Positions 892-22,927 of a stretch of 50,538 bases of DNA are shown here, piece by piece. The stretch lies in NCBI GenBank assembly GCA_027451345.1, contig DAIDJO010000120.1, forward strand, positions 1 to 50,538, given 5' to 3'. Source of the stretch: Solirubrobacterales bacterium (GTDB lineage: Bacteria; Actinomycetota; Thermoleophilia; Solirubrobacterales; Solirubrobacteraceae). The position numbers and the translations under genes were made by a program. Below the pieces are notes generated by a model. The model saw only the letters and a list, made by a program, of their open reading frames with translations, was not told where the DNA came from and did no database searches. Positions within the stretch are counted from its first letter, which is position 1. Each line of letters opens with the position of its first letter.

Positions 892-918
892 TCTTCGGCG
901 CGCGCGGGCAGAGCTTTA
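892..918 (-). promoter_or_regulatory. Putative FliA (sigma-28) promoter of cheW
   Basis: Reading the minus strand, TAAAGCTC is followed after exactly 11 nt by GCCGAAGA. The known sigma-28 consensus is TAAAGTTT-N11-GCCGATAA. It lies 60 nt upstream of the cheW ATG in the 170-nt spacer after fliN, so cheW-cheB appears to be a separate transcription unit. Confidence 0.75.
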
Positions 919-1000
919 GCCCCGGGGTGGGCTGTGGGAGGGCCGGTGAGCGCGGCGGAGCCGGGCGCCGAAGCAGCGGCGAGGCGCCCGCGGGGAAGGG

Positions 1001-1363
1001 CTAGCTCGCGGCGTCGGCCGCGGGCTCGGAGCCCGCGACCGGGGGCGGGGTGGGACGGGCTCCCGCGGCGCCGACCACCTCGGTGATGCGCACCCCGAAC
1101 TGCTCGTCGACGAAGACGACCTCGCCGCGGGCGATCGGGGTCCCGTTGACGAGCAGATCGACCGGCTCGCCGGCCATGCGGTTCAGGGTGAGGATCGAGC
1201 CCTGACGGAGCTCAAGCGTCTCGCCGACGGTCAGGCGGGTGCGCCCGATCTCGACCGTGAGATCGATCGGCACGTCACTGAGGCGCCGCAGATCCGCCAT
1301 CCCGGGCGGGTCCTGGGCGGCGCCGGTGTCGGTCAGTTGCTCGAGCTCGACGGGTTCGGACAT
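1001..1363 (-). CDS. fliN: Flagellar motor switch protein FliN (short form)
   Basis: FliN forms the base of the cytoplasmic C-ring that controls rotation direction and helps dock export substrates. The 120-residue protein has the surface-presentation-of-antigens (SpoA) domain at about residues 30-100: DVPIDLTVEIGRTRLTVGE, LNRMAGEPVDLLVNGTPIARGEV and VDEQFGVRITEVV. The N-terminal 25 residues are acidic and the last 20 are Pro/Ala-rich. It follows fliL by 18 nt at the end of the motA-motB-fliL-fliN run. A FliM gene, usually beside fliN, is not present between fliL and cheW and must lie elsewhere. Confidence 0.9.
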   Translation of the reverse strand: MSEPVELEQLTDTGAAQDPPGMADLRRLSDVPIDLTVEIGRTRLTVGETLELRQGSILTLNRMAGEPVDLLVNGTPIARGEVVFVDEQFGVRITEVVGAAGARPTPPPVAGSEPAADAAS

Positions 1364-1381
1364 ACGGACACGGTAGACGGT

Positions 1382-1816
1382 CTACTGGACCGCCACATCC
1401 GTGAAATAGATGTTGTTCACCTTCGTGTCGGTCTGCGCGCGGATGTCGGCGAGGATCCGGTGCTCGAGCGCGCGCCGGCCCGGCTGGGTGACGAGCGCGC
1501 TCGCGGGCTGATCCGTGACGTCGTTGGTGATGATCGCGCGGATCACCGCCTCCTCGGTCAGGCTGCCGAAGCCGGTCGGAGGCGGGTTCGTCGGGCTGGT
1601 CACCCCGATGCTCTGGGTCGGCGCCAGCAGCAGGGCCACGGTGAGGGTCGCGTACTGGCCGCCCCGCATGTTCAGGGTGAACTGCTTGGGGAGGATGTAG
1701 ATCGTGCCGTCGACCTTCACCTTGGCGTGCTTCTTGGGCATCGCGAACGTGTAGCCGGCGAAGCCGACGACACCCACGATGACGACGATGATGGGAATGA
1801 GGAGCTTCTTGTTCAT
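1382..1816 (-). CDS. fliL: Flagellar basal body-associated protein FliL
   Basis: FliL is a single-pass inner-membrane protein that surrounds the stator units and stabilises or activates them. The 144-residue sequence has one membrane helix at about residues 5-26, followed by a periplasmic domain. The C-terminal part, LTEEAVIRAIITNDVTD and RRALEHRILADIR, is the stomatin-like region of FliL. It starts 2 nt before the end of motB's stop-codon region, so translation is probably coupled to motB. Gene order motA-motB-fliL supports the call. Confidence 0.87.
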   Translation of the reverse strand: MNKKLLIPIIVVIVGVVGFAGYTFAMPKKHAKVKVDGTIYILPKQFTLNMRGGQYATLTVALLLAPTQSIGVTSPTNPPPTGFGSLTEEAVIRAIITNDVTDQPASALVTQPGRRALEHRILADIRAQTDTKVNNIYFTDVAVQ

Positions 1817-1818
1817 GG

Positions 1819-2688
1819 TTATGCGCCTGGGTTAGGTACCGGGTACTTGCGTTCGAAGACGACCTCCACCCGCCGGTTCTGAGCCCGGCCGGCCGGGGTG
1901 GCGTTGGAGGCGACGGGGTGCTCCTCGCCGTAGCCCTGGGAGCTGAGGCGAGCCGCCGGCACGCCGCGGTCGAGCAGGTACTGGAGCACGACGTTGGCCC
2001 GCCCGCTCGAGAGCCACCAGTTGCTCGGGAACTGCGAGTCGGCGATCGGGACGTTGTCCGTGTAACCCTCGACCACGACCGGATGGTCCTCGACGTCGAG
2101 GTTGATCAGGGTGGCGATCTCGGTGAGCAGCGGGTAGCTCTGCGGCTCGAGCGCGTCCTGCCCGGAGGCGAACAGCAGGTTGTCGGTGAGGACGGTGACG
2201 ACGAGGCCCTGCTGGTTGATCTGCGCCTTCACCTGGTTGGCCCAGCCGTGCGCCTGCGCGTAGGCGTTCAGGCGATGCTGCAGGGCGAGGAAGTCGCTGT
2301 TCTCCTGGGAGGCGTTCTGCGCCTCCTTGAGCAGCGCGTTGATCTGCGCCTGGCTCGCCTGTGCCCCGCGGTCGGTCGGCTTGGGCACGGTCGGGGTGAG
2401 CGGGACGATCGCCGGGATCACCGTGTTGTTCGGGGAGTTCCGGGCGGTCGAGTCGGCGCCCGCGTTCAGGATCGAGCTGCCGCCGTTGAGGATCGCGCCC
2501 GAGAAGGCGGCCTTCAACGACTGCTGCAGGCTGACGTACTTGGAGATGTTCACCGAGGAGATCGAGAACAGCACGACGAACAGCGCCAGCAGCAGCGTGA
2601 TCATGTCCGAGTAGGTGAGCAGCCATCGTTCTCCGCTCTCGTGCTCTCCGCCGCCGTCGGCGCCCCGGCGTCGCGATCCGCGGGCCAT
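1819..2688 (-). CDS. motB: Stator protein MotB
   Basis: MotB is the peptidoglycan-anchored half of the proton- or sodium-driven stator. It carries the N-terminal plug/membrane segment with LLTYSDMITLLLALFVVLFS, in which D28 is the ion-binding aspartate. A low-complexity linker covers about residues 75-125 and a C-terminal OmpA-like peptidoglycan-binding domain about residues 165-280 (VVVEGYTDNVPI, RANVVLQYL, GYGEEHPVA, NRRVEV). At 289 residues the length is normal. The ATG overlaps the motA stop by one base (TGATG), which indicates translational coupling. Whether the ion is H+ or Na+ cannot be read safely from the sequence. Confidence 0.95.
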   Translation of the reverse strand: MARGSRRRGADGGGEHESGERWLLTYSDMITLLLALFVVLFSISSVNISKYVSLQQSLKAAFSGAILNGGSSILNAGADSTARNSPNNTVIPAIVPLTPTVPKPTDRGAQASQAQINALLKEAQNASQENSDFLALQHRLNAYAQAHGWANQVKAQINQQGLVVTVLTDNLLFASGQDALEPQSYPLLTEIATLINLDVEDHPVVVEGYTDNVPIADSQFPSNWWLSSGRANVVLQYLLDRGVPAARLSSQGYGEEHPVASNATPAGRAQNRRVEVVFERKYPVPNPGA

Positions 2689-3500
2689 CAGGCGGCCTCG
2701 GCGCGCTCACGCTGCCCGACCTGCGCGACCGGCGGCTCCTCCTCGCTCACGCGGTCGATCGGGGCGATGTAGGAGTTGAGCTTCTCGGCGACGACGCGGG
2801 GGTTGTCCCCGGCCTGGACGGCGAGGATCCCGTCGAGGGTGAGTGTGCGCAGCTCGACCTCCGCCTTCGACAGGCCCTCGAGACGGCCGGCCACCGGCAG
2901 GTAGATCACGTTGGCCGAGCCGATGCCCAGGAGCGTGGCGACGAACGCGCTCGAGATCGAGGGGCCGAGCGTGGAGGGGGCCGACAGGTTCTGGAGCACG
3001 TGCACCAGGCCCATCACCGTGCCGATGATGCCCATCGTCGGGGCGAAGCCGCCGGCCTTGGTGAACATCGCCGAGCCGTGGTGGTGGCGCGCGATCATGC
3101 CGTCGATCTCGGCCTCGAGGACGTCGCGGACGAGGTCCGGGTCGATGCCGTCCACGACGAGCTGCAGCCCCTTGCGGGTGAACTCGTCGTCGATCTGATT
3201 GACGCGCTCGTCGAGCGCGAGCAGGCCCTCGCGGCGCGCCTGTTCGGCGAGCGAGACGAGCAGCGCCACGCGCTCTCCCACGTCCGGCGGCTTGCTCTTC
3301 AGGGCGACCTTGTAGAGCGGGATGATCTTGCTCATCGTCTCCGGGCCGACGCTCGCGCCGGTCGCGCCGGCCGTGCCGAGGAAGATGATCAGCACCGCGG
3401 GGATGTCGAGGAACGACGCCGGGCTCGTCCCGCCCATCAGGGCGCCGAGCAGAATGCCCACGAAGGCCATGCCGATGCTCAGACCCGTGGAGAGCTTCAT
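2688..3500 (-). CDS. motA: Stator protein MotA
   Basis: MotA forms the ion channel with MotB and pushes on FliG. The 270-residue protein has four hydrophobic segments: two near the N-terminus (residues 5-50) and a pair around FAPTMGIIGTVMGLVHVL and AFVATLLGIGSANVIYLPV. The cytoplasmic loop between them contains ARREGLLALDERV, typical of MotA. The start at 3500 (MKLSTG) was chosen over an in-frame ATG at 3536: homology starts here, and a FliA-like promoter (3508-3535) covers the longer form's start codon. That promoter would give an essentially leaderless message. Confidence 0.93.
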   Translation of the reverse strand: MKLSTGLSIGMAFVGILLGALMGGTSPASFLDIPAVLIIFLGTAGATGASVGPETMSKIIPLYKVALKSKPPDVGERVALLVSLAEQARREGLLALDERVNQIDDEFTRKGLQLVVDGIDPDLVRDVLEAEIDGMIARHHHGSAMFTKAGGFAPTMGIIGTVMGLVHVLQNLSAPSTLGPSISSAFVATLLGIGSANVIYLPVAGRLEGLSKAEVELRTLTLDGILAVQAGDNPRVVAEKLNSYIAPIDRVSEEEPPVAQVGQRERAEAA

Positions 3501-3507
3501 AGGCCCT

Positions 3508-3535
3508 ACATCGGCCGCCCGCGCCGATTTCTTCA
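3508..3535 (-). promoter_or_regulatory. Candidate FliA (sigma-28) promoter of motA
   Basis: On the minus strand TGAAGAAA is followed after 12 nt by GCCGATGT. The -10 ends 7 nt before the motA ATG. The spacer is one base longer than the classical N11 and the -35 is weaker, hence moderate confidence. It is supported by similar sites elsewhere in this cluster. Confidence 0.5.
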
Positions 3536-3635
3536 ATTCCGATGGACGTCAGGACGCCTCCGGCGCGCGCGGGCGGGCCCGGGACGGAGCGGCGGCGGGT
3601 GCGGCGGAGCTCGGCGGTGCGCCGTGGGGCGGGGC

Positions 3636-3968
3636 TCAGGTGCCGTCGGCCGGCTCGACCGGGTCCGGCGCGGGTGCGTCGGCCTCGGCTCGGTCGAGCG
3701 AGAGGAGCATGCCCTGGGCGGCGCGACGCGCGTGGACGCCGTGCGGCTGGGCGCCCTCCTGGCGGCGCCGGTTGAGCGCGCCGGAGAGGACGTCGACCCG
3801 GTGGTCGCGAATGTCCTGCACCACGCGCTCGGGCGACTCGGCCACGACGATCTTGGTGCCGGTCGTGAGCGTGATCACCGTGTCGGGATTGGCCTCCACC
3901 GTGACGATCAGATCGGGATTCAGATGAAACTCCTCGGCCTGGTGGCCGAGGCGGTGCAGCGAGATCAT
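3636..3968 (-). CDS. flbD: FlbD family flagellar protein, with C-terminal extension
   Basis: This small protein is usually found next to flgE or motA in Gram-positive flagellar clusters (B. subtilis SwrD/FlbD family) and is linked to flagellar power. The first 65 residues fit the family: MISLHRLGHQAEEFHLNPDL, VEANPDTVITLTTGTKIVVAES and ERVVQDIRDHR. Family members are usually about 70 residues, whereas this one has 110. The extra 40 residues are Arg/Ala/Pro-rich and not recognisable. The ATG at 3968 was chosen because the family starts at MI(S/T)L and AGAGGA lies upstream. The alternative in-frame ATG at 3998 adds ten residues with no homology. Confidence 0.8.
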   Translation of the reverse strand: MISLHRLGHQAEEFHLNPDLIVTVEANPDTVITLTTGTKIVVAESPERVVQDIRDHRVDVLSGALNRRRQEGAQPHGVHARRAAQGMLLSLDRAEADAPAPDPVEPADGT

Positions 3969-4080
3969 CGCCTGCGTCCTCTCTCCTCGGTGCGGCACAT
4001 GATGACAGCGGGCGGCGCCGGACCGTCGGCGCCGCCCTTAACCATCGGCTCGAGGAGCCGTTGGCCCAAGTCCCGACGGA

Positions 4081-5082
4081 TCAGGCGCCCGTCATCTGGA
4101 TGAGGGTCTGCATCATCTGGTCGGCGGTGCTGATCACGCTCGAGTTGGCCTGATAGCCGCGCTCGGCCTCGATCATGTTCGTGAACTCGGTGGCCATGTC
4201 GACGTTCGACTGCTCGAGCTCGCCGGAGATCGTCTGCGTGTTCACGAAGGGGCCGCTGTCCGGGGTGCCGTAGCTGGCCGAGCCCGAGTTGGGGGAGGCC
4301 GACCAGGCGGTGCCCGCCTCGCGGGCGAGCCCGGCCTGGTTCGGGAAGGAGGCGATCGCCAGGTAGCCGGCGAGGCAGGTCTGGCCGTAGTTCGTGTCCG
4401 CCGGGTTGTTGTCGGTGTAGGTGACCGCTCCACTCTGACCGATCGACACGTTCGTCGATCCCGGCGGGATGTAGATGTAGGTCGCGCCGGTCGCCGTCTG
4501 CGCGGCGGCGCTGCCCGGCGCGGCGGTCTGCGCGGCCGCCTGGGGCGTGGCGTAGCCGATCACGTACTGGCCGCCGGCGGTGGTGAGGAAGCCCTGTGCG
4601 TCGGTCGTGAGGTTGCCGGCCCGGGTGTAGCTGATCGCCGTCGGCAGCGACGCCTTGGTGACGCCCGCGCTCGTGCTGTTGGCATTGATCGCCACGGCGG
4701 CGTTGCCCGAGGCCAGCGGCGGCGTGTACGTGCCCGCGGTCGGCGCGGTCGGTGCGCCGGTGCTCGTGCCGACCACGAGGAAGCCATCGCCCTGCAGGCC
4801 GACGTCGAGGGCGTTGCCCGTGTTCTGGAAGGAGCCGGCGGACATGATCTGGTCGATCGAGCCGACCCCCACGCCGAGGCCGACCTGCTCCGGGTTGGTG
4901 CCGCCGTTGGACGCGGTCTGCGACGACCCGCCGGAGATCAGCATCGACAGCTCCGACTCGAACGTCGTGCGCTGCGCCTTGTAGCCGATCGTGTCGACGT
5001 TGGCCAGGTTGTTGGCCGTGACGTTGAGCATCTGCTGGTGGGCTTCGAGTCCGCTGATCGCGGAGTACATGCCTGGCATCAT
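4081..5082 (-). CDS. flgE: Flagellar hook protein FlgE
   Basis: FlgE polymerises into the hook that joins the rod to the filament. The 333-residue protein has the N-terminal rod-type motif (MYSAISGLEAHQQMLNVTAN then NLANVDTIGYKAQR) and the matching C-terminal coiled region (LEQSNVDMATEFTNMIEAER, GYQANSSVISTADQMMQTLI). The central region contains the F/GDGFLVV motif common to FlgE/F/G and a Thr/Ala/Gly-rich variable domain. It is short for a hook protein, since many exceed 400 residues. FlgG is a weaker alternative because true flgG and flgF/G genes occur on the plus strand. AAAGGAG lies 11 nt upstream of the start. It follows flgD and the TIGR02530-like gene, which is the usual hook gene order. 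Confidence 0.9.
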   Translation of the reverse strand: MMPGMYSAISGLEAHQQMLNVTANNLANVDTIGYKAQRTTFESELSMLISGGSSQTASNGGTNPEQVGLGVGVGSIDQIMSAGSFQNTGNALDVGLQGDGFLVVGTSTGAPTAPTAGTYTPPLASGNAAVAINANSTSAGVTKASLPTAISYTRAGNLTTDAQGFLTTAGGQYVIGYATPQAAAQTAAPGSAAAQTATGATYIYIPPGSTNVSIGQSGAVTYTDNNPADTNYGQTCLAGYLAIASFPNQAGLAREAGTAWSASPNSGSASYGTPDSGPFVNTQTISGELEQSNVDMATEFTNMIEAERGYQANSSVISTADQMMQTLIQMTGA

Positions 5083-5164
5083 CTGTCCATCAACTCCTTT
5101 GAGCGGCTTCCTCGAGGAGGTCCGGCCGCGGTTCGTGTCCTGTTGGCTGGTTGATCCGTGGCGC

Positions 5165-5575
5165 CTAGGCGATCACGGCACTGTCGATGTTGGTGAAGAC
5201 GTGAGACCTCATGGCCTCCGGGGTCACCGCGGTGATCACGGTGTTGTTCTGGACCGAGGCGACGAAGGCCGTCCCGTCCACGAAGACCACTGAGTTGCGC
5301 GCGCCCTTGCCGGCCGCGCGCTGGATGCCCTCGGTCAGGCGACCGAGGGTCTGGGTGTTGAGATCGACGCCACGGCGCGACAGGCGCTCCAGGGCGTGCT
5401 TGGAGAACGTCGGGGTCGTGCCGCCGACGCCCTGCTGAGCCAGGACCTCGGCGAACGAGGGTCCACTCGCCGGGGTCTGTGGCGCCTGCGGGCCGGCCGG
5501 CCGACCGGCCGGGGCGGGCGCCCCGGCCGCCGTTCCGGGCGGGATCAGGGCGGGGTTGTTGATCAGGTCGCTCAC
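5165..5575 (-). CDS. Flagellar operon protein, TIGR02530 type
   Basis: This 136-residue protein resembles the conserved 'flagellar operon protein' found between flgD and flgE in many Gram-positive and spirochaete clusters. The first 50 residues are Pro/Ala-rich. The conserved core follows: FSKHALERLSRRGVDLN, LTEGIQRAAGKGARNSVVFV and DGTAFVASVQNNTVITAV. No enzymatic motif is visible and the function is unknown. A role in hook assembly is inferred only from position. The start is GTG, overlapping the flgD stop by 4 nt (GTGA), so translation is probably coupled to flgD. Confidence 0.85.
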   Translation of the reverse strand: MSDLINNPALIPPGTAAGAPAPAGRPAGPQAPQTPASGPSFAEVLAQQGVGGTTPTFSKHALERLSRRGVDLNTQTLGRLTEGIQRAAGKGARNSVVFVDGTAFVASVQNNTVITAVTPEAMRSHVFTNIDSAVIA

Positions 5576-6090
5576 GGGACCGTGGTGGTGGTCGTGCCGG
5601 TGGTCGTGCCGGTCGTGGTGCCGGTCGTCGTGCCGGTCGTGGTGCCGGCCGCCGTGACGTTGAGGATCGACCCCAGGTGGACGCCCGCGGTGCCGGCGAC
5701 GGTCAGGGTCGGGCCCGAGCTTGTGATCTGCACGCTGGAGACGGTGCCGGTGACCTTGTTGCCGGTCGCCTGGTCGAGATAGGTCACCGAGTCGCCGATC
5801 AGGCTGATCGCCTGGCTCACCGACTGCGCCTGCGCGGTCGTCTGCGTGTTCTGCGCGGTGTTGGTCTCCTGTTCGACGGCCGTCATCTGCGCCAGCTCGG
5901 TGAGGTACTGGGTCGGATCGCTCGACGACGGGTTCAGCGGATCCTGGTGCTGGAGCTCGTCCATCATCAGGTTCAGAAACTGGTTCGTGTTGAGGGCCAG
6001 GGAGCTGCTGTTGCTGATCGTTGAGCCCGCCGTGCCCTGCTGGGCCTGGCCCGAGGCGTTGGTGGTGGCGGGCGGAGTTGAGATGCTCAT
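5572..6090 (-). CDS. flgD: Hook-capping scaffold protein FlgD, with Gly-Thr repeat tail
   Basis: FlgD caps the growing hook so that FlgE subunits can polymerise. The conserved N-terminal export/capping region is present at about residues 35-90: LNTNQFLNLMMDELQHQDPL, NPSSSDPTQYLTELAQMTAV, then EQ and LIGDSVTYLD. The C-terminal beta-domain is short, and the protein ends in five GTTT units. At the DNA level this is a 12-bp imperfect repeat at 5577-5648. At 172 residues it is shorter than the enterobacterial protein but similar to other Gram-positive FlgD. A GAGGGAAC ribosome-binding site (RBS) precedes the ATG, 16 nt after the fliK stop. Confidence 0.9.
   Translation of the reverse strand: MSISTPPATTNASGQAQQGTAGSTISNSSSLALNTNQFLNLMMDELQHQDPLNPSSSDPTQYLTELAQMTAVEQETNTAQNTQTTAQAQSVSQAISLIGDSVTYLDQATGNKVTGTVSSVQITSSGPTLTVAGTAGVHLGSILNVTAAGTTTGTTTGTTTGTTTGTTTTTVP
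5577..5648. repeat. 12-bp imperfect tandem repeat encoding the FlgD tail
   Basis: The unit is close to GTGGTCGTGCCG on the plus strand, repeated about six times with third-position changes (GTC/GTG/GTT alternate). It encodes the (Gly-Thr-Thr-Thr)n tail of FlgD. The degeneracy at third positions suggests it is old rather than a freshly expanded array. Confidence 0.75.
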
Positions 6091-6106
6091 CGCGAGTTCC
6101 CTCGGC

Positions 6107-8100: not shown

Positions 8101-8108
8101 GCTCATCG

Positions 8109-8135
8109 TGATCGGCAGATCGTGATCGAACTTGA
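8109..8135 (-). promoter_or_regulatory. Putative FliA (sigma-28) promoter inside the fli operon, before fliJ
   Basis: On the minus strand TCAAGTTC is followed after exactly 11 nt by GCCGATCA, close to the sigma-28 consensus. It lies in the only sizeable gap (about 50 nt) between fliI and fliJ. The FliJ ATG at 8100 is 8 nt after the -10. It would let fliJ-fliK-flgD-flgE be transcribed independently of flgB-fliI. Confidence 0.7.
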
Positions 8136-8149
8136 GCAGCGGCGAGCGG

Positions 8150-14194: not shown

Positions 14195-15340
14195 TCAGAC
14201 CGAGACGGTCGAAGGGAGCGGGCTGTGCTCCCAACCCTTGATCCCGAGGCACGGGTCGTCGAGGAGCGAGACCTCCTCATCCGCCATCCCGTCCCGGCTG
14301 ATCAGGCGCACGACCGGGCGGTCGAGGGCCTGATCGGGCACGCTGGCGACGATGCCGATTCGCCCGTCGGTGAGCTCGACCTCGGTGCCGGCCGGAAACG
14401 GCGCCACCACCTGGAGAAAGGCATCGACGACCGCCGGCTCGAACAACGTCCCGCGCCCGGCCATGATCGCCCGCACGCCCTCGTGGGCGGGCTGCGCCGG
14501 GGCGTAGAGCCGCTCCGAGGTGATCGCGTCGAACACGTCGGCGACGGCGGCGATGCGCGCCATCTGGTGGATCTCGGTGCCGACCCGGCCGTCGGGATAC
14601 CCGGCGCCGTTCCACCGTTCATGGTGTCGCAGCACGACGGCCTTCACCAGCGGGCTCCATCGGCTGCCGTCGAGCATGTCGACGCCGGCGCGCGGGTGGG
14701 TCTTCATGATCGACCACTCCTCCGCGGTCAGTTTGCCCGGTTTGTTCAGGATGCCGAGCGGGATCGCCAGCTTGCCGATGTCGTGCAGGAGCAGGCCGAC
14801 GCCGAGGATCGAGAGGCGATCCTCCATCTCGTCGAAGCGCGACTCGCCCCGGAAGTTCACCCACCCGTGCGTGTTGAAGTACCGGGACCCGATGAGCAGG
14901 CCGAGCGCGGTCACGTCGATCGAGTGCTGGAAGGTGTAGCCGTCGGCCGAGGAGAGGTCGGCCAGCGCGCGCGCCGCCCCGCCCGAGGATTCGATCTGGG
15001 CCATGATCCGCCGGACGACGTCCTCGAGTTCCCGCACCGCCTCGGGGGCCAGGCGCCGGCCACGACCGAGCGAGTCTCGGGCCGTCGTGTAGGCGCCGGA
15101 CACCGCCCGGGTGGCCACCTCTCTGGTCTGGTCGTCGATGATCGGGTCGACGGCGATTCCGGCGCTCACGTCGTCCTCGACATAGATCGCCGAGATGCCG
15201 GCGCGGGCGAGCAGCTCGCGGTAGCGCGGGGTGATCGTCACCCCGGCGCGCAGCAGGGGAACCCCGTCCGGCCGTCCGATCAGAACGTCCCGTCCGAGTT
15301 CGGCTCCGTCTTCTGCTCGGGCCAGCGAGATCAGGCGCAT
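14195..15340 (-). CDS. HD-GYP domain c-di-GMP phosphodiesterase
   Basis: HD-GYP proteins hydrolyse cyclic di-GMP, a second messenger that represses motility. The 381-residue protein has an N-terminal region of about 120 residues without a recognised sensor domain. The catalytic domain carries H139 (FQHS), H186-D187 (LLLHDIGKL), H215 (THPRAG) and the diagnostic HHERWNGAGYPDG at 239-251. All metal ligands visible in the family seem to be kept, so it should be active. No membrane segment is present. Position between fliT and flgB, and a candidate FliA promoter 8 nt before the ATG, suggest it lowers c-di-GMP when the flagellum is built (inference). Confidence 0.9.
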   Translation of the reverse strand: MRLISLARAEDGAELGRDVLIGRPDGVPLLRAGVTITPRYRELLARAGISAIYVEDDVSAGIAVDPIIDDQTREVATRAVSGAYTTARDSLGRGRRLAPEAVRELEDVVRRIMAQIESSGGAARALADLSSADGYTFQHSIDVTALGLLIGSRYFNTHGWVNFRGESRFDEMEDRLSILGVGLLLHDIGKLAIPLGILNKPGKLTAEEWSIMKTHPRAGVDMLDGSRWSPLVKAVVLRHHERWNGAGYPDGRVGTEIHQMARIAAVADVFDAITSERLYAPAQPAHEGVRAIMAGRGTLFEPAVVDAFLQVVAPFPAGTEVELTDGRIGIVASVPDQALDRPVVRLISRDGMADEEVSLLDDPCLGIKGWEHSPLPSTVSV

Positions 15341-15348
15341 TGCTCAGT

Positions 15349-15376
15349 TAGTCGGCGCAAACCAACGCCGGCTTGA
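15349..15376 (-). promoter_or_regulatory. Candidate FliA (sigma-28) promoter of the HD-GYP gene
   Basis: On the minus strand TCAAGCCG-N12-GCCGACTA lies with its -10 ending 8 nt before the ATG at 15340. The spacer is one base longer than consensus and the second half of the -35 is poor. The arrangement is the same as at motA. Confidence 0.45.
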
Positions 15377-15457
15377 GTTGCGGGCGGTTGTGCGGTCTGC
15401 GACCGGTCGTGCCGGCAGCCGCCGGAGCGCGGGACATGGCGGGTGCGGAGTCGATGA

Positions 15458-15784: not shown

Positions 15785-16158
15785 GCGGTGGCGATCTGCG
15801 ACCAGGCGTCGCGGAGGGTCCCGAGCAGCCGGCGAACCTCGTCGATCGGCTCGGGGTCGGAGTTCAGGCGGGCCTGGTTGAGGTGACGCTGACAGAAGAG
15901 GTAGATCGAGGCGAGCCGGGGAGCGATCTCGCCGCCACGCTCGAAGTCGAGGGACGCCTGCAGGTGGCCGATGATCAGTTCGGCCCGGCGGAGCTTGTTG
16001 TGCGCCGCCTCGATCTGGCGCTCGCCCATCGCCACCGCCGCCTGAGCGAGATAGCGGCCGGCGCCGTCATAGAGCATCACGATCAGCTGCTCCTGAGTGG
16101 CGGTCAGGACCGCTGAGCGCTGATATTGGTCACGTGGGGCGGTGTAGTTCGTGGCCAT
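15781..16158 (-). CDS. fliS: Flagellin export chaperone FliS
   Basis: FliS binds the C-terminus of flagellin and prevents premature polymerisation in the cytoplasm. The 125-residue protein shows the FliS signature: a QYQRSAVLTATQEQLIVMLY opening (YxxxxVxTAxPxxLIxMLYDG), then IEAAHNKLRRAELIIGHLQA and LASIYLFCQRHLNQARL. The length is typical. It is preceded by its own FliA-type promoter. No SD is seen in the 15 nt before the ATG. Confidence 0.95.
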   Translation of the reverse strand: MATNYTAPRDQYQRSAVLTATQEQLIVMLYDGAGRYLAQAAVAMGERQIEAAHNKLRRAELIIGHLQASLDFERGGEIAPRLASIYLFCQRHLNQARLNSDPEPIDEVRRLLGTLRDAWSQIATA

Positions 16159-16173
16159 CGAGGTCTGAACATG

Positions 16174-16200
16174 TATTCGGCATCTGCCCGGCGTGCTTTA
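16174..16200 (-). promoter_or_regulatory. Putative FliA (sigma-28) promoter of fliS
   Basis: On the minus strand TAAAGCAC-N11-GCCGAATA is present, with both boxes close to consensus and an exact 11-nt spacer. The -10 ends 15 nt before the fliS ATG. Confidence 0.8.
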
Positions 16201-16256
16201 GCGTCGGGCGAGCACGGGATACGGCGGCGGGGGCTCCGGCCCGTCAGCCCACGGGT

Positions 16257-16278
16257 ACGGCGGCGCGCCGTCCGCCGT
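16257..16278 (-). terminator. Possible weak terminator after fliD
   Basis: A perfect 7-bp stem (ACGGCGG / CCGCCGT) with an 8-nt loop lies 15 nt beyond the fliD stop and before the fliS promoter. There is no U-tract, as is common in actinobacteria, so the function is uncertain. Confidence 0.35.
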
Positions 16279-16292
16279 CGCTCGCGGTGCGC

Positions 16293-17828: not shown

Positions 17829-17845
17829 GTCGGTGTTCCTCTCGG

Positions 17846-18079
17846 TTATCTGAGTCCGTGGCCCGCGGCCAGTTGCAGCGCGTCGCTGGGACTGAGTCGC
17901 GTGACCCGGGCCCCCGTCAGATCCCGCAGCTCGATGGCCACGGTCCCGGCGGTCGTGTCGAGACCGAAGTGCACCCGTCGTCCACGCGAGCTCAGTTGCT
18001 CGTATGCCTCCGCGGCCGCCGCGATGTCACGCAGGACCTCGAGCGGGGGTGCATCCGGCAGATCAACCTCAGAACTCAA
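17846..18079 (-). CDS. flaG: FlaG family protein
   Basis: This 77-residue protein fits FlaG, a small protein encoded just upstream of fliD in many bacteria and linked to filament length. The core is YEQLSSRGRRVHFGLDTTAG followed by VAIELRDLTGARVTRLSP, similar to FlaG's 'L.F..ddetg..vVkv.D..TgeVIRqIP'. The chosen start is TTG at 18079, giving MSSEVDLPD, with AAGGAG about 10 nt upstream. No ATG or GTG is available in a better place. The long upstream extension of this frame has no family support. Confidence 0.72.
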   Translation of the reverse strand: MSSEVDLPDAPPLEVLRDIAAAAEAYEQLSSRGRRVHFGLDTTAGTVAIELRDLTGARVTRLSPSDALQLAAGHGLR

Positions 18080-18145
18080 TGGGATCGCACTCCTTGTGCC
18101 TCTCGGTGCGCGGTCGCGCACCACAGCCCACAGCTTCAACTCGTG

Positions 18146-18173
18146 TGATCGTCCGGGCGCCGGCCAAACTTGA
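18146..18173 (-). promoter_or_regulatory. Candidate FliA (sigma-28) promoter of flaG-fliD
   Basis: On the minus strand TCAAGTTT is followed after 12 nt by GACGATCA. The -35 is very close to consensus and the -10 differs at two positions. It lies 66 nt upstream of the flaG start, in the gap after the glycosyltransferase stop at 18265. Confidence 0.55.
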
Positions 18174-18264
18174 AGGCTCTGGACAAACGATGGACACCCT
18201 GGCCCGCCGGTGCCCGGCGACGCCCAGCTCCGCGTGGTTCGGGGATGGCGCGGGCGCCGACCGT

Positions 18265-20775
18265 TCAAGCGGCGACCGGCTCCCGCCGCGGCTCGGCCAG
18301 TCGAGCGTCGGCCCGTCCGAGCACGGCTCGCGCGTCCTCGTCGCGCGGGTCGAGCTGGACCGCCTGGCCCGCGAACGTGCGGGCGGTCTCGGGCTGGTCG
18401 TTGGCCAGCGCCACCCGAGCCAGCCCGACGAGCGCACGCGCATCGGGCTGCTGCTCGCAGACGGCCATCCATTCGCGCCCCGCCGAGCGCAGGAAGCCGC
18501 GCCGCAGATACATCTGGGCGAGGAGCTCGCGCCGCTCCCGCTCGCTCAATGGCGCCGCATCGAGCAGCGGCAGCAGCGCTTCGAAGTTCTCGAAGTCCCG
18601 CACCCGGAGCAACGACTCGAGCATCAGGGCCAGCAGGGGCACGCCATCGGCGGGCGGCAGCGGTGCCGCCTCGCCGCGCCGCGCCGCCAGCCAGCTGGCG
18701 TACAGCCCGCGCTCGCCGGCGGGCAGGCCGACACGCTGAGCGCGCTCGAGCGCCGCCTCGGCACCCGTCAGGTCGCCCGCCAGCAGGCGCGCGAACAGTT
18801 CGCTGCGCACCACCACGACGGCAAAGCCACCGTCCTCGGAGGTGCGCTCGGCCTCCTGTGCGGCCTCGGCGTAGCGGCGCTGGTACATCAGTGACTCGAC
18901 GAGCGCCGCCCGGGCGGCGGAGCCATGCGGCTGGCGCTCGAGCACCTGCCGGAACTGTGCCTCGGCCCCGTCCGCGTGCCCCTGTTCGAACAGCGCGGTG
19001 CCCAACATGAAGCGCCCGGCCGCCGGCAGCCGCTGACTGACGGCCTCGATCCTCGCCACCACCGCCGCCGGCTCCACGCCGGATCGCAGCAGCGCCGTGG
19101 CATACGGGTAGATCGTCCCGATGTGCTCGGTGTGGTGTTCGATGCACCACGCCAGCAGCTCGAGCGCCGGTTCCCACTCGCCGCGGTTGAGATGGACGGT
19201 GGCCAGGATGATCCTCGGCATGAACGTGCCCGCGCCGACGGTCGCCGTGTACCGGGCCGGAGCGTCGCCCATCTCCATGGCACGCCGCATGTGCGCCTCG
19301 GCGGCGTCGGCGCGCTCGAGCGCGAGGCAGGCCATGCCCTGCTCGTAGACGAGGTCCGTGAAGCCCGGGAAGCGCTCCAGGCCCAGAGTCGCTCGGCTCA
19401 GCGCGTCCTCGAGGCGGCCGGCGGCCCGCAGTGCCTTGACCGATCGCAGGACCAACGACGGCGCGTACTCGTGCCAGAAGGTGCCGTCCGTCTCCAGGCG
19501 GCGGAAGCCGGTCTCGTACTCGGCCACCGCCTTCTCGACCTCGCCGGCGGCGAAGTACTCGGAACCGAGGTTGTAGTGGAAGAAGGCGTTCAGCTCGTGC
19601 GCGGGCGTCTCGCGCTGTTGCGCCAGCAGCAGCTCGAGGTTGCGGCGCGCCTTGTCCTTGGACTCCCGGACGACCCCGAGGTAGCCGTAATGGTTGACGC
19701 GCACGGTCGACTGGGCGACGCGCTCGGGCAGATAGGCCGGCAGGTGGTAGGCGATCTGCTCATGCAGCCGCCCGGTGAAACGGTAGTTGGGCCGGTTGCG
19801 GAACATGCGCAGCGCGCTGTGCACGATCGAGACGCCGGTGCCCTCGTCGTTACCGGTGAAGTTCGTCTCGTGCAGGAAGAAGGCCTCCCGCCAGGTCTGT
19901 CCCGCCAGCGCTCGCAGGGCCTCGACGTCCTCGCTGACGAGGACCTCATCGGCGTCGAGGTAGATGAACCAGTCACCCGTCGCGGCCTCCAGTGACGCGT
20001 TGCGGGCGTCGCTGAACGAGCCGGTCCATTCCCGCTCGATCACCTTCGCACCGAAGGATCGGGCGATCTCGATCGTCGCGTCGGTGGAGCCGGTGTCGAC
20101 CACGATGATCTCGTCCACCGCGGGACGGACGGCCTCGAGGGTGCGGGGGAGCATCTCCTCCTCGTCGCGGACGATCATGACGAGGCTGATGCGCTGATCG
20201 GAGGCGGGCTTGGCGCGGGCGGCGACGCGCCGTGCCCGCTTGGAGAGGTCGGCGAGCACGGGGTGGAACGAGAGCTTGCGATGCTGGGCCGAGCGACCGC
20301 GGTTGGCGATCTCGCTCAGGTTTCGATCGAGATGCGGCAGCTCCGGGTCGAGTCGCTTGGCGGCCTGGAACAGCGCCCTGGCTCCGTCGAGCGCCCACAG
20401 CTCGTAGAGCACGACGCCGGTGTAGTTGAGGAGCACCGGCTCGGCGGGATCGGCCTCGAGGACGGCCAGGGCGGCCCGGGCCATCGCCAGCAGCAGCTCG
20501 GTCGCGCGCTTCTCGCTCAGCGTCGGAAGCGCCGCGAGCCCGCGCTCGAGCAGCAGCTTGCGGACCTGGTAGACCCGCTGGGGGTTCTCGAGCTCGCCCG
20601 CCTCGCTGAACAGCTGGATGTACTGGGTGAGCTCGCCCGCGCTGATGAACGCGCCGGCGCGCGTGAGGAACCCCTGGACCTGCAGGTTCTCGGCGTGATA
20701 GGCATGCTGCGCCGCCTCGGCCTCCGAGGGGCCGGGGCTGGCGGGCAGAGAGGTCTTGGTCAGGCGAAGGGCCAT
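18265..20775 (-). CDS. TPR-containing family 2 glycosyltransferase (probable flagellin or surface glycosylation)
   Basis: The 836-residue protein has a helical N-terminal part (residues 1-190) with TPR-like repeats. A GT-A glycosyltransferase domain follows at about 196-400, with ISLVMIVRDEEEMLPRTLEA, VDTGSTD at 226-232 and the metal-binding DADE at 274-277. The C-terminal half consists of many TPR-like units (for example HYNLGSEYFAAGEVEKAVAE). This layout is like other cytoplasmic protein-modifying glycosyltransferases with TPR scaffolds. ATG 20775 was chosen because AAGGA lies upstream and a FliA-type promoter lies 34 nt before it; an ORF extension to 21141 crosses that promoter. A FliA promoter and position next to flaG-fliD suggest flagellin modification, but this is inference. 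Confidence 0.82.
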   Translation of the reverse strand: MALRLTKTSLPASPGPSEAEAAQHAYHAENLQVQGFLTRAGAFISAGELTQYIQLFSEAGELENPQRVYQVRKLLLERGLAALPTLSEKRATELLLAMARAALAVLEADPAEPVLLNYTGVVLYELWALDGARALFQAAKRLDPELPHLDRNLSEIANRGRSAQHRKLSFHPVLADLSKRARRVAARAKPASDQRISLVMIVRDEEEMLPRTLEAVRPAVDEIIVVDTGSTDATIEIARSFGAKVIEREWTGSFSDARNASLEAATGDWFIYLDADEVLVSEDVEALRALAGQTWREAFFLHETNFTGNDEGTGVSIVHSALRMFRNRPNYRFTGRLHEQIAYHLPAYLPERVAQSTVRVNHYGYLGVVRESKDKARRNLELLLAQQRETPAHELNAFFHYNLGSEYFAAGEVEKAVAEYETGFRRLETDGTFWHEYAPSLVLRSVKALRAAGRLEDALSRATLGLERFPGFTDLVYEQGMACLALERADAAEAHMRRAMEMGDAPARYTATVGAGTFMPRIILATVHLNRGEWEPALELLAWCIEHHTEHIGTIYPYATALLRSGVEPAAVVARIEAVSQRLPAAGRFMLGTALFEQGHADGAEAQFRQVLERQPHGSAARAALVESLMYQRRYAEAAQEAERTSEDGGFAVVVVRSELFARLLAGDLTGAEAALERAQRVGLPAGERGLYASWLAARRGEAAPLPPADGVPLLALMLESLLRVRDFENFEALLPLLDAAPLSERERRELLAQMYLRRGFLRSAGREWMAVCEQQPDARALVGLARVALANDQPETARTFAGQAVQLDPRDEDARAVLGRADARLAEPRREPVAA

Positions 20776-20809
20776 GCGGCGCGATCCTTGATCGAGTTGG
20801 GCCCTCTGG

Positions 20810-20836
20810 TCATCGGCACGGGGACCGAGACCCTTA
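20810..20836 (-). promoter_or_regulatory. Putative FliA (sigma-28) promoter of the glycosyltransferase gene
   Basis: On the minus strand TAAGGGTC-N11-GCCGATGA is present, with an exact 11-nt spacer. It lies 34 nt upstream of the ATG. It shares a 353-nt divergent region (20776-21128) with fliA. The remainder of that region is GC-rich and holds only the fliA candidate promoter. Confidence 0.72.
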
Positions 20837-21037
20837 ATCCCGGTCTGCACGGCCCCTGCGCCTCGGTCCCCGCCCGGGGGCCGGTCAGGGGGGCGTCGGG
20901 CGAAGGTCTGCGGCCCGACCCCAGCGGTGTGCGGGTTTCCCGCAAAACGCCTGCTCAGGAGCACTTCGGACCGCGGCCAACCGGCGTCGCAGCGCGCCAA
21001 AAGATGGCGGATCGGCCCGTGGAGCGCTCCGGCCCCT

Positions 21038-21065
21038 TCAGGTTCTCCCCGGCGCGCGCCGATGT
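21038..21065 (+). promoter_or_regulatory. Candidate FliA (sigma-28) autoregulatory promoter of fliA
   Basis: TCAGGTTC is followed after 12 nt by GCCGATGT on the plus strand, 63 nt upstream of the chosen fliA GTG. The match is weaker than at the other sites. If real, it would be a positive feedback loop. Confidence 0.38.
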
Positions 21066-21128
21066 AGCAGCTGCCGGCGGCGGGGGCGTCGGCTCCGAGA
21101 AACCTTCGTGACGTGCCAGGAGTCACCA

Positions 21129-21935
21129 GTGACGCGAGCAACAGCCGAGCGGGCCAGCAGCGAGACCGTTCAACAGCTATGGGAGCAGTACCACTCGACG
21201 GGCGATGCCGGCCTGCGGAACCGATTGGTGCTCACCCTCGCGCCGATGGTGAAGTACATCGTCTACCGCAAGGCACGCGAGATCCCCGCGCGCTGCGACG
21301 TGGAGGACTTCGTCTCCTGCGGTCTCGAGGCGCTGATGCGCTCGCTCGATCGCTACGACCCCGCCAAGGGCGCGACGCTCGAACAGTTCGCCTGGACGCG
21401 CATCCACGGCGCGGTGCTCGACGAGCTGCGGCGCAACGACTGGGCGCCGCGGTCCCTGCGCCGCTGGGAGCGGGACATCTCGCGGGCCCGTGAGAAGTTC
21501 ATCGCGCTCTACGGTCGCGCCCCCAGCCACGAGGAGCTCGCCGACTCGGTCAACCTGACCCGCGCGGAGCTCGACCGTTGGCTGCGGGACATCCATCGCT
21601 CCGACGTCGGCTCCCTCAACGTGCTCGTCCTCGGTGACGACGACACGACGATCGAGCGGATCGACACGCTCTCGAGCCAGGATCCGAACCTCGATCCCGA
21701 GCAGCGCGTCGTGCGCGAGCACGCCAAGGAGCGCTTCCGCGCCGCCTTCGAGCAGCTGCCCGAGCGTGAGCGCCAGGTCGCCGTCCGCCTGTACCTGCAC
21801 AACATGACCCTGCGCGAGATCGGGGACGCGCTCGGTGTGACGGAGAGTCGCGTCTGCCAGATCCACGGTCAGCTGCGGCGCCGGCTGCGCGAGCTCCTGG
21901 CCGCCGACGAGCAGCTGTTCAGCGAGGTCGCGTAG
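21129..21935 (+). CDS. fliA: Flagellar sigma factor FliA (sigma-28)
   Basis: FliA directs RNA polymerase to late flagellar promoters. The 268-residue protein has region 2 (MVKYIVYRKAREIPARCDVE, DFVSCGLEALMRSLDRYDPA, LEQFAWTRIHGAVLDELRRN), region 3 (RAREKFIALYGRAPSHEELA) and region 4 with the helix-turn-helix LREIGDALGVTESRVCQIHG. LDELRRNDWAPRSLRR is the typical FliA/WhiG segment. The GTG at 21129 was chosen because AGGAG lies 7 nt upstream; another GTG at 21108 has no RBS. It is transcribed alone, divergently from the glycosyltransferase gene. WhiG-type sigma factors are close relatives, but the flagellar context decides. Confidence 0.95.
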   Translation: MTRATAERASSETVQQLWEQYHSTGDAGLRNRLVLTLAPMVKYIVYRKAREIPARCDVEDFVSCGLEALMRSLDRYDPAKGATLEQFAWTRIHGAVLDELRRNDWAPRSLRRWERDISRAREKFIALYGRAPSHEELADSVNLTRAELDRWLRDIHRSDVGSLNVLVLGDDDTTIERIDTLSSQDPNLDPEQRVVREHAKERFRAAFEQLPERERQVAVRLYLHNMTLREIGDALGVTESRVCQIHGQLRRRLRELLAADEQLFSEVA

Positions 21936-21990
21936 GGGTCGTCGCCGGCTCGCGTGGCCCTCGGGAACGCCGCGGGCCGGGCGCGAGGCA

Positions 21991-22281
21991 TCACGACACG
22001 GTTCGGCGCCCGCCGGCCTCCGCATCGAGCCGGTAGGCCCAGGCGAGCGTCTCCGCCACCGCCCGGTACATCGCCTCCGGGACCTCGGTCCCGAGGTCGA
22101 GCGCCGACAGGGCTCGGGCGAGCCCCGGGTCGGAGCGCACCGGCACCCCCGCCTCGCGCGCGGCGGCGATGATCCGCTCCGCGATCTGCCCCCGCCCGGA
22201 CGCCACCAGGCGTGGAGCGGCATCTCCCGCGTCGTAGCGAAGCGCGGCCGCCTCCCTCGGCGTGTCGGGCCGGTCGGTCAC
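21991..22281 (-). CDS. flhX: FlhB C-terminal paralogue (FlhX / YlqH type)
   Basis: This 96-residue protein corresponds to the cytoplasmic C-terminal domain of FlhB, the export-gate component that controls the hook-to-filament substrate switch. Conserved parts are AALRYDAGDAAPRLVASGRG, EAGVPVRSDPGLARAL and VPEAMYRAVAETLAWAYRLD. The NPTH autocleavage motif of full FlhB is missing, so the protein begins just after the cleavage point. Such paralogues occur as flhX or B. subtilis ylqH. The start is GTG, overlapping the upstream FliK-like gene by 4 nt (GTGA). Confidence 0.85.
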   Translation of the reverse strand: MTDRPDTPREAAALRYDAGDAAPRLVASGRGQIAERIIAAAREAGVPVRSDPGLARALSALDLGTEVPEAMYRAVAETLAWAYRLDAEAGGRRTVS

Positions 22282-22871
22282 GCGAAGACCTCGACCGGCT
22301 CGCGCCGGGTCACGACCGTGACGTTCGTCGGCCGCTCGGTCGCCGCCACGAGTGCCGACCGCAGCGCCTCGGTCCGGTCCTGGGCCGGCGCAAGCGCCCC
22401 CGGTGCGACGGCCACCGTCACGGCCAGCGCACCCTCGGACAGCGTGAGGTGCAGGTCGATCGGTCCCAGGCTCGGCGCGTCGTAGCGCAGCCTGAGCGCG
22501 TGCGTCCTCTCCTCGCCGGCGGCGCCCCGTCGCCGGTCGGCGTCCCGCTCGGTCACCCGCACCGACCCGCCGCCCGGCAGTGCGATCCGCTCGTGCTCGA
22601 CCGCCACCGGCGGCACCGCCTGGGCCTCGCCGCGGATCGCCAGGATCACCTTCTCCGGCGTGAGCGCCCGAACCTGCAGACGCAGCTCCTCACCGGCACG
22701 GACGTTGGCGGGCAGCTCCGCGTCGAGCAGGATCCCCGCCAGGCTGAGCACGCCGCGGCCGTCCGCCGTCACGGAGGCGACGCGCACCATCAGCTCTCGG
22801 CCGACGGCCAGCCGTATGTCGGCGGCCAGGACGGTGCGCAGCAGCGCGGCATCGACGGCGAGCGGCTCCAC
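22278..22871 (-). CDS. Small FliK-like protein (hook-length control family C-domain)
   Basis: The 197-residue protein ends in a segment like the FliK C-domain: LRLRYDAPSLGPIDLHLTLS, GALAVTVAV and ALRSALVAATERPTNVTVV. Its N-terminal half resembles other FliK/YlqG-type proteins (VGRELMVRVASVTADGRGVL). It is paired with the FlhB-like gene by a 4-nt overlap, as ylqG-ylqH is in B. subtilis. The GTG at 22871 was chosen: a CACACT -10 box lies 6 nt before it, fitting the leaderless pattern of this genome. An upstream in-frame start at 22904 adds 11 residues and crosses that box. Function is inferred from family and pairing. Confidence 0.68.
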   Translation of the reverse strand: MEPLAVDAALLRTVLAADIRLAVGRELMVRVASVTADGRGVLSLAGILLDAELPANVRAGEELRLQVRALTPEKVILAIRGEAQAVPPVAVEHERIALPGGGSVRVTERDADRRRGAAGEERTHALRLRYDAPSLGPIDLHLTLSEGALAVTVAVAPGALAPAQDRTEALRSALVAATERPTNVTVVTRREPVEVFA

Positions 22872-22877
22872 GCTCGC

Positions 22878-22883
22878 AGTGTG
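22878..22883 (-). promoter_or_regulatory. -10 box CACACT of the FliK-like/flhX pair
   Basis: The hexamer ends 6 nt before the GTG at 22871. It lies within 20 nt of the divergent FliA promoter of the rod genes. Confidence 0.5.
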
Positions 22884-22900
22884 GCAAGCCGACGTGGGAC

Positions 22901-22927
22901 TCAAGGATTGGCGGCGCGAGCCGATTA
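22901..22927 (+). promoter_or_regulatory. Putative FliA (sigma-28) promoter of the plus-strand rod operon
   Basis: TCAAGGAT-N11-GCCGATTA matches the sigma-28 pattern with an exact 11-nt spacer. The -10 ends 9 nt before the ATG at 22937, so the mRNA would be leaderless or nearly so. No SD is seen. Confidence 0.75.

What the first reader, a model, noticed from the sequence alone, without database searches (positions are those of the whole stretch)
892..22927. A FliA regulon read from sequence: ten sigma-28-like promoters across the flagellar cluster
Ten upstream regions share the pattern T(A/C/G)A(A/G)G...GCCGA with an 11-12 nt spacer between 8-nt boxes. The exact N11 sites are before cheW, fliJ, flgB, fliS, the glycosyltransferase gene and flgF. 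The N12 sites are before motA, the HD-GYP gene, flaG and possibly fliA. The -35 variant TCAAGG(T/A)T recurs. Even early basal-body genes (flgB operon) appear FliA-dependent, unlike the enteric hierarchy. This is a testable regulon model for a poorly studied lineage.
Basis: partly seen in the sequence, partly recalled or inferred. Interest (0 to 1): 0.72.

Follow-up and report, generated by a model that had tools for sequence, protein, structure and literature searches.

The report
Cluster-wide sigma-28 control of flagellar genes
In a soil actinobacterium and its relatives, flagellar operons from the inner engine to the outer filament carry the same kind of genetic switch, so flagellar genes appear to be turned on together by one dedicated factor rather than in the stepwise order known from E. 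coli.

Summary
In detail: all ten sites are present (nine with GCCGA; flaG has GACGA). They fit the textbook sigma-28 promoter TMAAGTTT-N11-GCCGATAA (recalled), so the consensus is not new. A matrix from that recalled consensus, not trained here, finds sites upstream of 144 of 187 orthologous operon heads in Solirubrobacterales, against 7 of 291 operon-internal genes and at most 7 of 187 with 40 scrambled matrices. The basal-body site before flgB passes in 22 of 22, flgF in 28 of 28. In relatives the export-gate operon (fliO, 9 of 10) and flagellin (5 of 5) carry it too. A cluster-wide regulon is well supported; FliA dependence is untested. The genome has a second sigma-28-family factor, WhiG-like, with a similar region 4.2; only FliA tracks flagella (12 of 12 flhA+, 5 of 29 flhA- genomes). 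Additions: flgF, motA, fliJ and HD-GYP sites lie mostly 7-12 nt before the start codon, predicting leaderless mRNAs; the FliA clade lacks the glycine with which WhiG contacts c-di-GMP (0 of 39 against 30 of 30). One-sigma control is already reported for Actinoplanes (recalled), so this is a variant of a known design.

The parts
892..918 (-). sigma-28-type promoter TAAAGCTC-N11-GCCGAAGA before cheW (leadered; AGGAGG before the start)
   Evidence: score 18.2; sequence; 8 of 9 cheW upstreams pass
3508..3535 (-). sigma-28-type promoter TGAAGAAA-N12-GCCGATGT, -10 end 7 nt before the motA ATG
   Evidence: score 14.9; 12 of 12 motA upstreams pass; 7-10 nt from the start in 8 of 12
8109..8135 (-). sigma-28-type promoter TCAAGTTC-N11-GCCGATCA, 2 nt before the first ATG of the fliJ frame and 8 nt before the second, which I take as the likely start
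   Evidence: score 21.8; 6 of 11 fliJ upstreams pass, all 6 within 12 nt of a start codon
14074..14100 (-). sigma-28-type promoter TCAAGGTT-N11-GCCGATAA, 80 nt before flgB (presumed operon flgB-flgC-fliE-fliF-fliG-fliH-fliI)
   Evidence: score 24.6, best in the window; 22 of 22 upstreams pass
15349..15376 (-). sigma-28-type promoter TCAAGCCG-N12-GCCGACTA, 8 nt before the ATG of the HD-GYP gene
   Evidence: score 13.0; 3 of 6 orthologues pass, at 8-10 nt; two more have weaker sites at 8-9 nt
16174..16200 (-). sigma-28-type promoter TAAAGCAC-N11-GCCGAATA before fliS
   Evidence: score 17.8; 21 of 23
18146..18173 (-). sigma-28-type promoter TCAAGTTT-N12-GACGATCA before the flaG-like gene and fliD (-10 departs from GCCGA)
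   Evidence: score 20.2; 20 of 24
20810..20836 (-). sigma-28-type promoter TAAGGGTC-N11-GCCGATGA before a large glycosyltransferase gene; the scan prefers the same place read as TTAAGGGT-N12
   Evidence: score 16.8; 10 of 13
21038..21065 (+). weak candidate promoter TCAGGTTC-N12-GCCGATGT before fliA
   Evidence: score 13.3; 14 of 39 fliA upstreams pass, 8 of 39 on the reverse strand
22901..22927 (+). sigma-28-type promoter TCAAGGAT-N11-GCCGATTA, 9 nt before the flgF ATG
   Evidence: score 21.5; 28 of 28 pass, all 28 at 7-12 nt
21108..21935 (+). fliA, sigma-28-family factor, presumed reader of these promoters (start codon uncertain)
   Evidence: TIGR02479 192.6 bits, cut-off 189.6; FliA-like factors in 12 of 12 flhA+ genomes
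14195..15340 (-). HD-GYP gene (predicted c-di-GMP phosphodiesterase), in the proposed regulon
   Evidence: Pfam HD_5 and HD; HD at residue 186, HHE at 239, GYP at 247

Best explanation
A cluster-wide sigma-28 regulon. FliA, encoded within the cluster, binds core RNA polymerase and recognises TCAAG-type/GCCGA-type sites with an 11-12 nt spacer at the head of nearly every flagellar transcription unit: the flgB unit (rod, M-ring, switch, ATPase), fliJ (hook-length and hook genes), flgF (distal rod and hook-filament junction), flaG/fliD, fliS, motA, cheW, an HD-GYP gene and, in relatives, the export gate (fliO) and flagellin (fliC). The structural genes are thus switched on together rather than in an enteric-type cascade; any order would come from promoter strength, leaders and export control. 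Shown here by sequence: the sites, their conservation and their restriction to unit heads. Inferred: that FliA, not its WhiG-like paralogue, reads them; the extent of the operons; that transcription starts about 6-8 nt after the -10 box; and that flgF, motA, fliJ and HD-GYP mRNAs are therefore leaderless.
For: 144 of 187 head upstreams pass with a textbook matrix not trained on these genomes; reverse strand 11 of 187; operon-internal genes 7 of 291; 40 scrambled matrices mean 1.8, max 7 of 187. flgB 22/22, flgF 28/28, motA 12/12, fliS 21/23, flaG 20/24, cheW 8/9, GT 10/13. In G024, closest by MotA (92%) with the cluster on one contig, 13 of 17 sites at score >=13 over 64 kb lie at unit heads, including fliO and flagellin. 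fliO 9 of 10 evaluable, fliC 5 of 5, both counts including G024. Window FliA passes the FliA/WhiG cut-off; FliA-like factors (by score band 178-216 bits) occur in 12 of 12 flhA+ but 5 of 29 flhA- genomes (Fisher P 8e-7). In the sister class Rubrobacteria, 12 of 20 predicted sites of this consensus lay just upstream of mapped start sites (PMC8325347, passages).
Against: No transcription data for this lineage. fliA itself is weakly supported (14/39, reverse 8/39), and fliJ (6/11) and HD-GYP (3/6) are not conserved everywhere. The genome has a WhiG-like factor whose region 4.2 resembles FliA's. Genome-wide counts of a tight pattern separate flhA+ from flhA- genomes only modestly (means 13.3 and 9.8, P 0.01). 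Other promoters before the same operons were not tested. The head of the own export-gate operon is off its contig and the own flagellin was not looked for, so those two rest on relatives. The genomes compared are related, so counts are not independent.
Confidence: 0.8

Rival explanations
1. The promoters are read by the WhiG-like paralogue (G000:C116:17862-18539), or by both factors, so flagellar expression would be gated by the RsiG/c-di-GMP switch known for WhiG.
For: A WhiG-like factor is over the family cut-off in 38 of 41 genomes and is the stronger match in the own genome (280 against 193 bits). The consensus of region 4.2 is similar in both groups. WhiG shares the flagellar promoter consensus, and Conexibacter woesei RsiG binds its WhiG with c-di-GMP (PMC8325347).
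Against: WhiG-like presence does not track flagella (38 of 41 genomes, 12 with flhA), whereas FliA does. The FliA clade has Tyr, Phe or Thr where all 30 WhiG-like proteins have the Gly that I equate with the c-di-GMP-contacting one (0 of 39), so RsiG gating of FliA itself looks unlikely. No RsiG was found, but only loci held at that time were looked at.
Confidence: 0.15
2. The sigma-28 sites are real but, for early operons, secondary: housekeeping or activator-dependent promoters drive flgB and fliO first and FliA only boosts them, so a conventional hierarchy survives.
For: fliA has no well conserved sigma-28 promoter (14 of 39), and in sister genera its upstream seems to carry another element, so something else may start the circuit. 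A FlgM-like protein is encoded, which in enterics goes with late-only FliA control (recalled). Other promoter types were not scanned.
Against: flgB carries the strongest site in the window and the second strongest in G024, and passes in 22 of 22 loci; fliO carries one in 9 of 10.
Confidence: 0.2
3. The pattern is a chance product of GC-rich sequence and motif hunting.
For: The degenerate pattern occurs 79 times in the genome, mostly outside the cluster, and was chosen after seeing the sites.
Against: Shuffles give 0.7 sites against 10; scrambled matrices max 7 against 144; flgF sites lie 7-12 nt from the start in 28 of 28.
Confidence: 0.01

Closest known systems
Actinoplanes missouriensis flagellar gene cluster (Jang et al. 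2016, J Bacteriol)
   Same: As recalled from its abstract (paper not held): eleven mapped starts share CTCA-N15-17-GCCGAA and one sigma factor is inferred for all flagellar genes. A passage of PMC8325347 says WhiG-like flagellar sigma factors direct its flagellar genes.
   Different: That species has three FliA-family factors tied to sporangium formation and dehiscence (passages) and, as I place it, belongs to the later classes reported to lack FlgFG, FlaG, FlhF and FlgM (PMC10746217 section 7). The present cluster has flgF, flgG and a flaG-like gene, its genome a FlgM-like gene and an flhF-like match; -35 is mostly TCAAG.
Enteric sigma-28 (FliA) class 3 regulon
   Same: Same promoter consensus and spacing; FliA-family factor; FlgM-like protein present.
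   Different: Enteric FliA mainly drives late genes while FlhDC with sigma-70 drives basal body and export gate (recalled); here flgB, and in relatives fliO, carry the sigma-28 box.
Rubrobacter WhiG/RsiG regulon (PMC8325347)
   Same: Sigma-28-family promoters of the same consensus in a sister class.
   Different: There 3 of 12 confirmed promoters lie in the type IV pilus cluster and 5 before c-di-GMP enzyme genes; the window factor is a different paralogue that tracks flagella and lacks the glycine.

Membership tests
Sigma-28 (FliA-type) promoters | -35 TMAA(G) and -10 GCCGATAA with about 11 nt between 8-mers | tested here: met
   130 passing sites (9 genes, fliA not counted): spacer 11 in 106, 12 in 23, 10 in 1; C-G-A of the -10 in all 130. 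The matrix embodies this consensus and only spacers 10-12 were allowed, so letters and spacing are partly imposed.
Sigma-28 (FliA-type) promoters | Placed upstream of motility operons more than elsewhere | tested here: met
   144 of 187 heads against 7 of 291 internal genes
Sigma-28 (FliA-type) promoters | Transcription start a few nt after the -10 box | not testable with these tools
   no transcript data for this lineage
FliA sigma factors (TIGR02479 FliA_WhiG) | Family model over curated cut-off | tested here: met
   192.6 bits against 189.6
FliA sigma factors (TIGR02479 FliA_WhiG) | Linked to flagellar genes | tested here: met
   encoded within the cluster; FliA-like factors in 12 of 12 flhA+ and 5 of 29 flhA- genomes, assigned by score band
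WhiG partner of RsiG | Lys-x3-Gly-Arg that contacts c-di-GMP | tested here: not met
   Gly in 0 of 39 FliA-clade proteins, 30 of 30 WhiG-like; columns matched by motif and alignment, not by structure
Single-sigma (non-hierarchical) flagellar regulon | Early genes lose expression without the flagellar sigma factor | not testable with these tools
   needs a fliA mutant
Single-sigma (non-hierarchical) flagellar regulon | Sigma-28 box before basal-body and export-gate operons | tested here: met
   flgB 22 of 22; fliO 9 of 10 evaluable, all in relatives
FlgM-checkpoint systems | FlgM present and tracking flagella | tested here: inconclusive
   FlgM-like match in own genome (28.3 bits, cut-off 25) and, at E <= 0.001, in 6 of 12 flhA+ and 13 of 29 flhA- genomes; 15 of these 19 genomes reach the cut-off

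The most novel reading that the evidence does not exclude
FliA sits at the top, not the bottom, of the flagellar programme in Solirubrobacterales. It drives the export gate that would be needed to expel its own FlgM-like inhibitor, so the classical hook checkpoint cannot work as in enterics and the inhibitor would be a global on/off brake. FliA also drives an HD-GYP phosphodiesterase, which would lower c-di-GMP, and it makes leaderless flgF, motA, fliJ and HD-GYP mRNAs that a CsrA blocking ribosome-binding sites could not touch, splitting one simultaneous regulon by leader type rather than by promoter class.
Probability: 0.25. Interest if true: 0.62.

Novelty: new variant of a known kind. Interest (0 to 1): 0.42.

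Why it matters
It gives a conserved, testable regulon for the flagella of a deep-branching actinobacterial class. The listings of eight searches of an open-access library showed me no regulatory study of flagella in this lineage; most listed papers were not opened and subscription papers are not held. If FliA drives the basal body and export gate, the stepwise logic taken from enterics is not general, and single-sigma control may be old in Actinobacteria rather than a zoospore speciality. The paralogue comparison suggests that the c-di-GMP-sensing contact is kept in WhiG and absent from the flagellar factor.

Tried and rejected
Chance/composition artefact: rejected by shuffles, scrambled matrices and operon-internal controls.

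c-di-GMP/RsiG gating of the window FliA: considered after PMC8325347; disfavoured because the contact glycine is absent in 39 of 39 FliA-clade proteins. No RsiG gene was seen in the loci held; most of the genome was not looked at for it.

Genome-wide regulon by pattern alone: the tight pattern gives 14 matches in the own genome (4 for its reversed control) and means of 13.3 and 9.8 in 12 flhA+ and 29 flhA- genomes (P 0.01); most matches look like chance, so no regulon outside the cluster is claimed. The 36293 (+) match, 266 nt before a SleB-like gene, is left as probable chance.

FlgM as proof of a checkpoint: matches are weak and occur in 13 of 29 flhA- genomes too; left unexplained.

A conserved element upstream of fliA in sister genera: tested against shuffles with a typed 24-mer; 8 of 40 loci reach 15 of 24 matches, single loci barely exceed shuffles, and the window does not have it. 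Recorded only as noticed.

Leader classes are not clean: by first in-frame start codon, fliS (10 of 21), flaG (14 of 20) and GT (2 of 10) also fall within 12 nt, but several of their starts are uncertain. With flaG counted as leadered, SD-like sequence is 24 of 50 against 10 of 49 (P 0.006); without flaG it is 18 of 30 against 10 of 49 (P 0.0006).

Rows dropped before counts: L030 (same strain as L029); hits whose alignment began after residue 25; upstreams shorter than 200 nt; flgE queries that hit flgG in the fliA loci; flgG (28 rows; 15 of 29 passed, where L030 was still in) and orf238 (5 rows), put in neither group. In one search: one short fliO upstream (L157) and one hit that I take for flgL (L152, 30% identity) among fliC hits.
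Full report
Where it is. The window is the whole contig C120 of a 3.31-Mb, 133-contig genome, 85% complete. The nearest relatives by FliA are MAGs labelled Actinomycetes or Solirubrobacterales, then Conexibacter and Solirubrobacter isolates. Pfam and NCBIfam identify, on the minus strand, cheW, fliN, fliL, motB, motA, flbD, flgE, a small Flagellar_put gene, flgD, fliK, fliJ, fliI, fliH, fliG, fliF, fliE, flgC, flgB, an HD-GYP gene, fliS, fliD and a large glycosyltransferase; on the plus strand fliA, flgF/flgG, flgN, flgK, flgL, fliW and csrA. The flaG-like and flgJ-like genes are named by position only; neither matched Pfam.

The observation. All ten sites exist as described, except that the flaG -10 box is GACGATCA. 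So the pattern confirms sigma-28-type promoters rather than defining a new consensus. Against block shuffles, 1-22927 has 10 sites for 0.7 expected. A degenerate pattern, chosen after the fact, is enriched there (7 found, 0.48 expected).

I scored 200 nt upstream of orthologous genes in the window, in 38 fliA-centred loci (39 fetched; L030 dropped as the same strain as L029) and in stretches from 11 genomes, some of which are the same organisms. The matrix came from the recalled consensus, not from these sites. The threshold was the 99th percentile of 2555 shuffled upstreams. Operon heads pass in 144 of 187, reverse strand 11 of 187. By gene: flgB 22/22, flgF 28/28, motA 12/12, fliS 21/23, flaG 20/24, GT 10/13, cheW 8/9, fliJ 6/11, HD-GYP 3/6, fliA 14/39. 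Twenty operon-internal genes pass in 7 of 291. Forty column-scrambled matrices find on average 1.8 and at most 7 of 187. The genomes are related, so these are not independent counts, but the head/internal contrast cannot come from relatedness. The 130 passing sites outside fliA have spacer 11 in 106, 12 in 23 and 10 in 1; only 10-12 were allowed.

The whole machine. In G024, closest by MotA (92%), the cluster lies on one contig with 17 sites over 64 kb. Thirteen sit at heads: flgF, fliA, GT, flaG/fliD, fliS, HD-GYP, flgB, fliJ, motA, cheW, fliO, flagellin and a second glycosyltransferase. Four do not. The fliO site (export gate, followed by fliP) is present in 9 of 10 evaluable genomes and the flagellin site in 5 of 5, G024 included. 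In the own genome flhA lies on a 5.4-kb contig whose first frame is open at the left end, so that operon's head could not be read; the own flagellin was not looked for.

Leaderless transcripts. For flgF the -10 box ends 7-12 nt before the start codon in 28 of 28 loci. For motA it is 7-10 nt in 8 of 12, and 15-22 nt in four genomes of another family. fliJ is within 12 nt in 6 of 6 passing sites (8 nt in the window if the second ATG is the start), HD-GYP at 8-10 nt in 3 of 3. flgB (2 of 22) and cheW (0 of 8) mostly have leaders; fliS (10 of 21), flaG (14 of 20) and GT (2 of 10) are mixed, with uncertain starts. SD-like sequence is rarer in the first four genes (10 of 49) than in flgB and cheW (18 of 30; P 0.0006) or in flgB, cheW and flaG (24 of 50; P 0.006). 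If starts lie 6-8 nt after the box, these mRNAs begin at or next to the AUG. Two literature searches on leaderless flagellar genes returned 5 and 3 papers, which I did not open, so I claim nothing about precedent. A FlgM-like gene on contig C18 has the same layout (10 nt) but a 13-nt spacer; among the matches examined only one other locus, L062 from G024, shares it.

Which sigma factor. The genome encodes two sigma-28-family proteins over the cut-off: the window FliA (192.6 bits) and a WhiG-like one on C116 (280.4 bits), 38% identical. The latter matches 6pfj/6pfv, which I recall as Streptomyces WhiG with RsiG, far better than the window FliA does (305 against 150 bits). They form two fully supported groups in a tree of 39 and 30 sequences. 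Over 41 genomes the WhiG-like factor is in 38. FliA-like factors, assigned by score band (178-216 bits), are in all 12 flhA+ genomes and in 5 of 29 flhA- ones (G002, G011, G018, G019, G037; G018 has motA and is 73% complete) (Fisher P 8e-7). This makes FliA the likely reader, but region 4.2 is similar in both, so cross-recognition is open. PMC8325347 (abstract, passages, Results part 1 of 4 and section 10) shows WhiG held by RsiG and c-di-GMP through Lys-x3-Gly-Arg. Matching that motif by alignment, the WhiG-like proteins keep the glycine in 30 of 30; the FliA clade has Tyr, Phe or Thr in 39 of 39.

Known or new. As recalled, Jang et al. 2016 mapped one shared promoter type for all flagellar genes in Actinoplanes missouriensis; the paper is not held. 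Passages of held papers confirm that WhiG-like/FliA-family factors act there. PMC10746217 (passages and section 7) describes basal actinobacterial classes as keeping FlgFG and the later ones as also lacking FlaG, FlhF and FlgM. The present case is therefore a single-sigma-type regulon in a lineage that keeps the fuller gene set and a FlgM-like protein. I call it a new variant of a known kind. What is shown is sequence conservation; FliA dependence, start sites and the simultaneous switch are inferred.

Noticed in passing
fliA upstream in L017, L018, L019, L020, L023, L024, L026, L028, L031, L033, L034, L043: A conserved-looking stretch like TACCCCAAA-CGGG-GAT lies shortly before a CCGATA-type box; the window lacks it. 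It could be a site for an unknown activator of fliA, but single loci barely exceed shuffles.
   Followed up: partly
G000:C18 (L058:1525-1695) and L056, L057, L059-L063: Small FlgM-like proteins occur in 13 of 29 flhA- genomes as well as 6 of 12 flhA+ ones; their sigma partner in genomes without flagella is unclear.
   Followed up: partly
14195-15340: HD-GYP protein with intact HHE...GYP motif directly upstream of flgB with its own sigma-28-type site, suggesting a c-di-GMP-lowering feedback.
   Followed up: partly
21991-22904 (-): A FlhB C-terminal-like gene (FlhX-type, my label) and a weak FliK-like gene, below Pfam's cut-off, sit between fliA and flgF on the opposite strand; no site of score 6 or more was printed around their start.
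   Followed up: partly
28612-28845 (+): CsrA gene just after fliW; leaderless mRNAs of the same regulon would escape a CsrA that blocks ribosome-binding sites.
   Followed up: no
18265-20775 (-): Large glycosyltransferase with TPR-like matches (SunS-like, below cut-off) with a conserved sigma-28-type site (10 of 13); perhaps a flagellin glycosyltransferase.
   Followed up: no
36293-36319 (+): A sigma-28-type match outside the cluster, 266 nt before a SleB-like gene; probably chance.
   Followed up: no
flgG upstream in L017, L018, L020, L021, L023, L024, L026, L031, L034, L041, L043: In Conexibacter, Solirubrobacter and other genera flgG has its own sigma-28-type site, so splitting of the flgF unit seems to go with a new promoter of the same type.
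   Followed up: no
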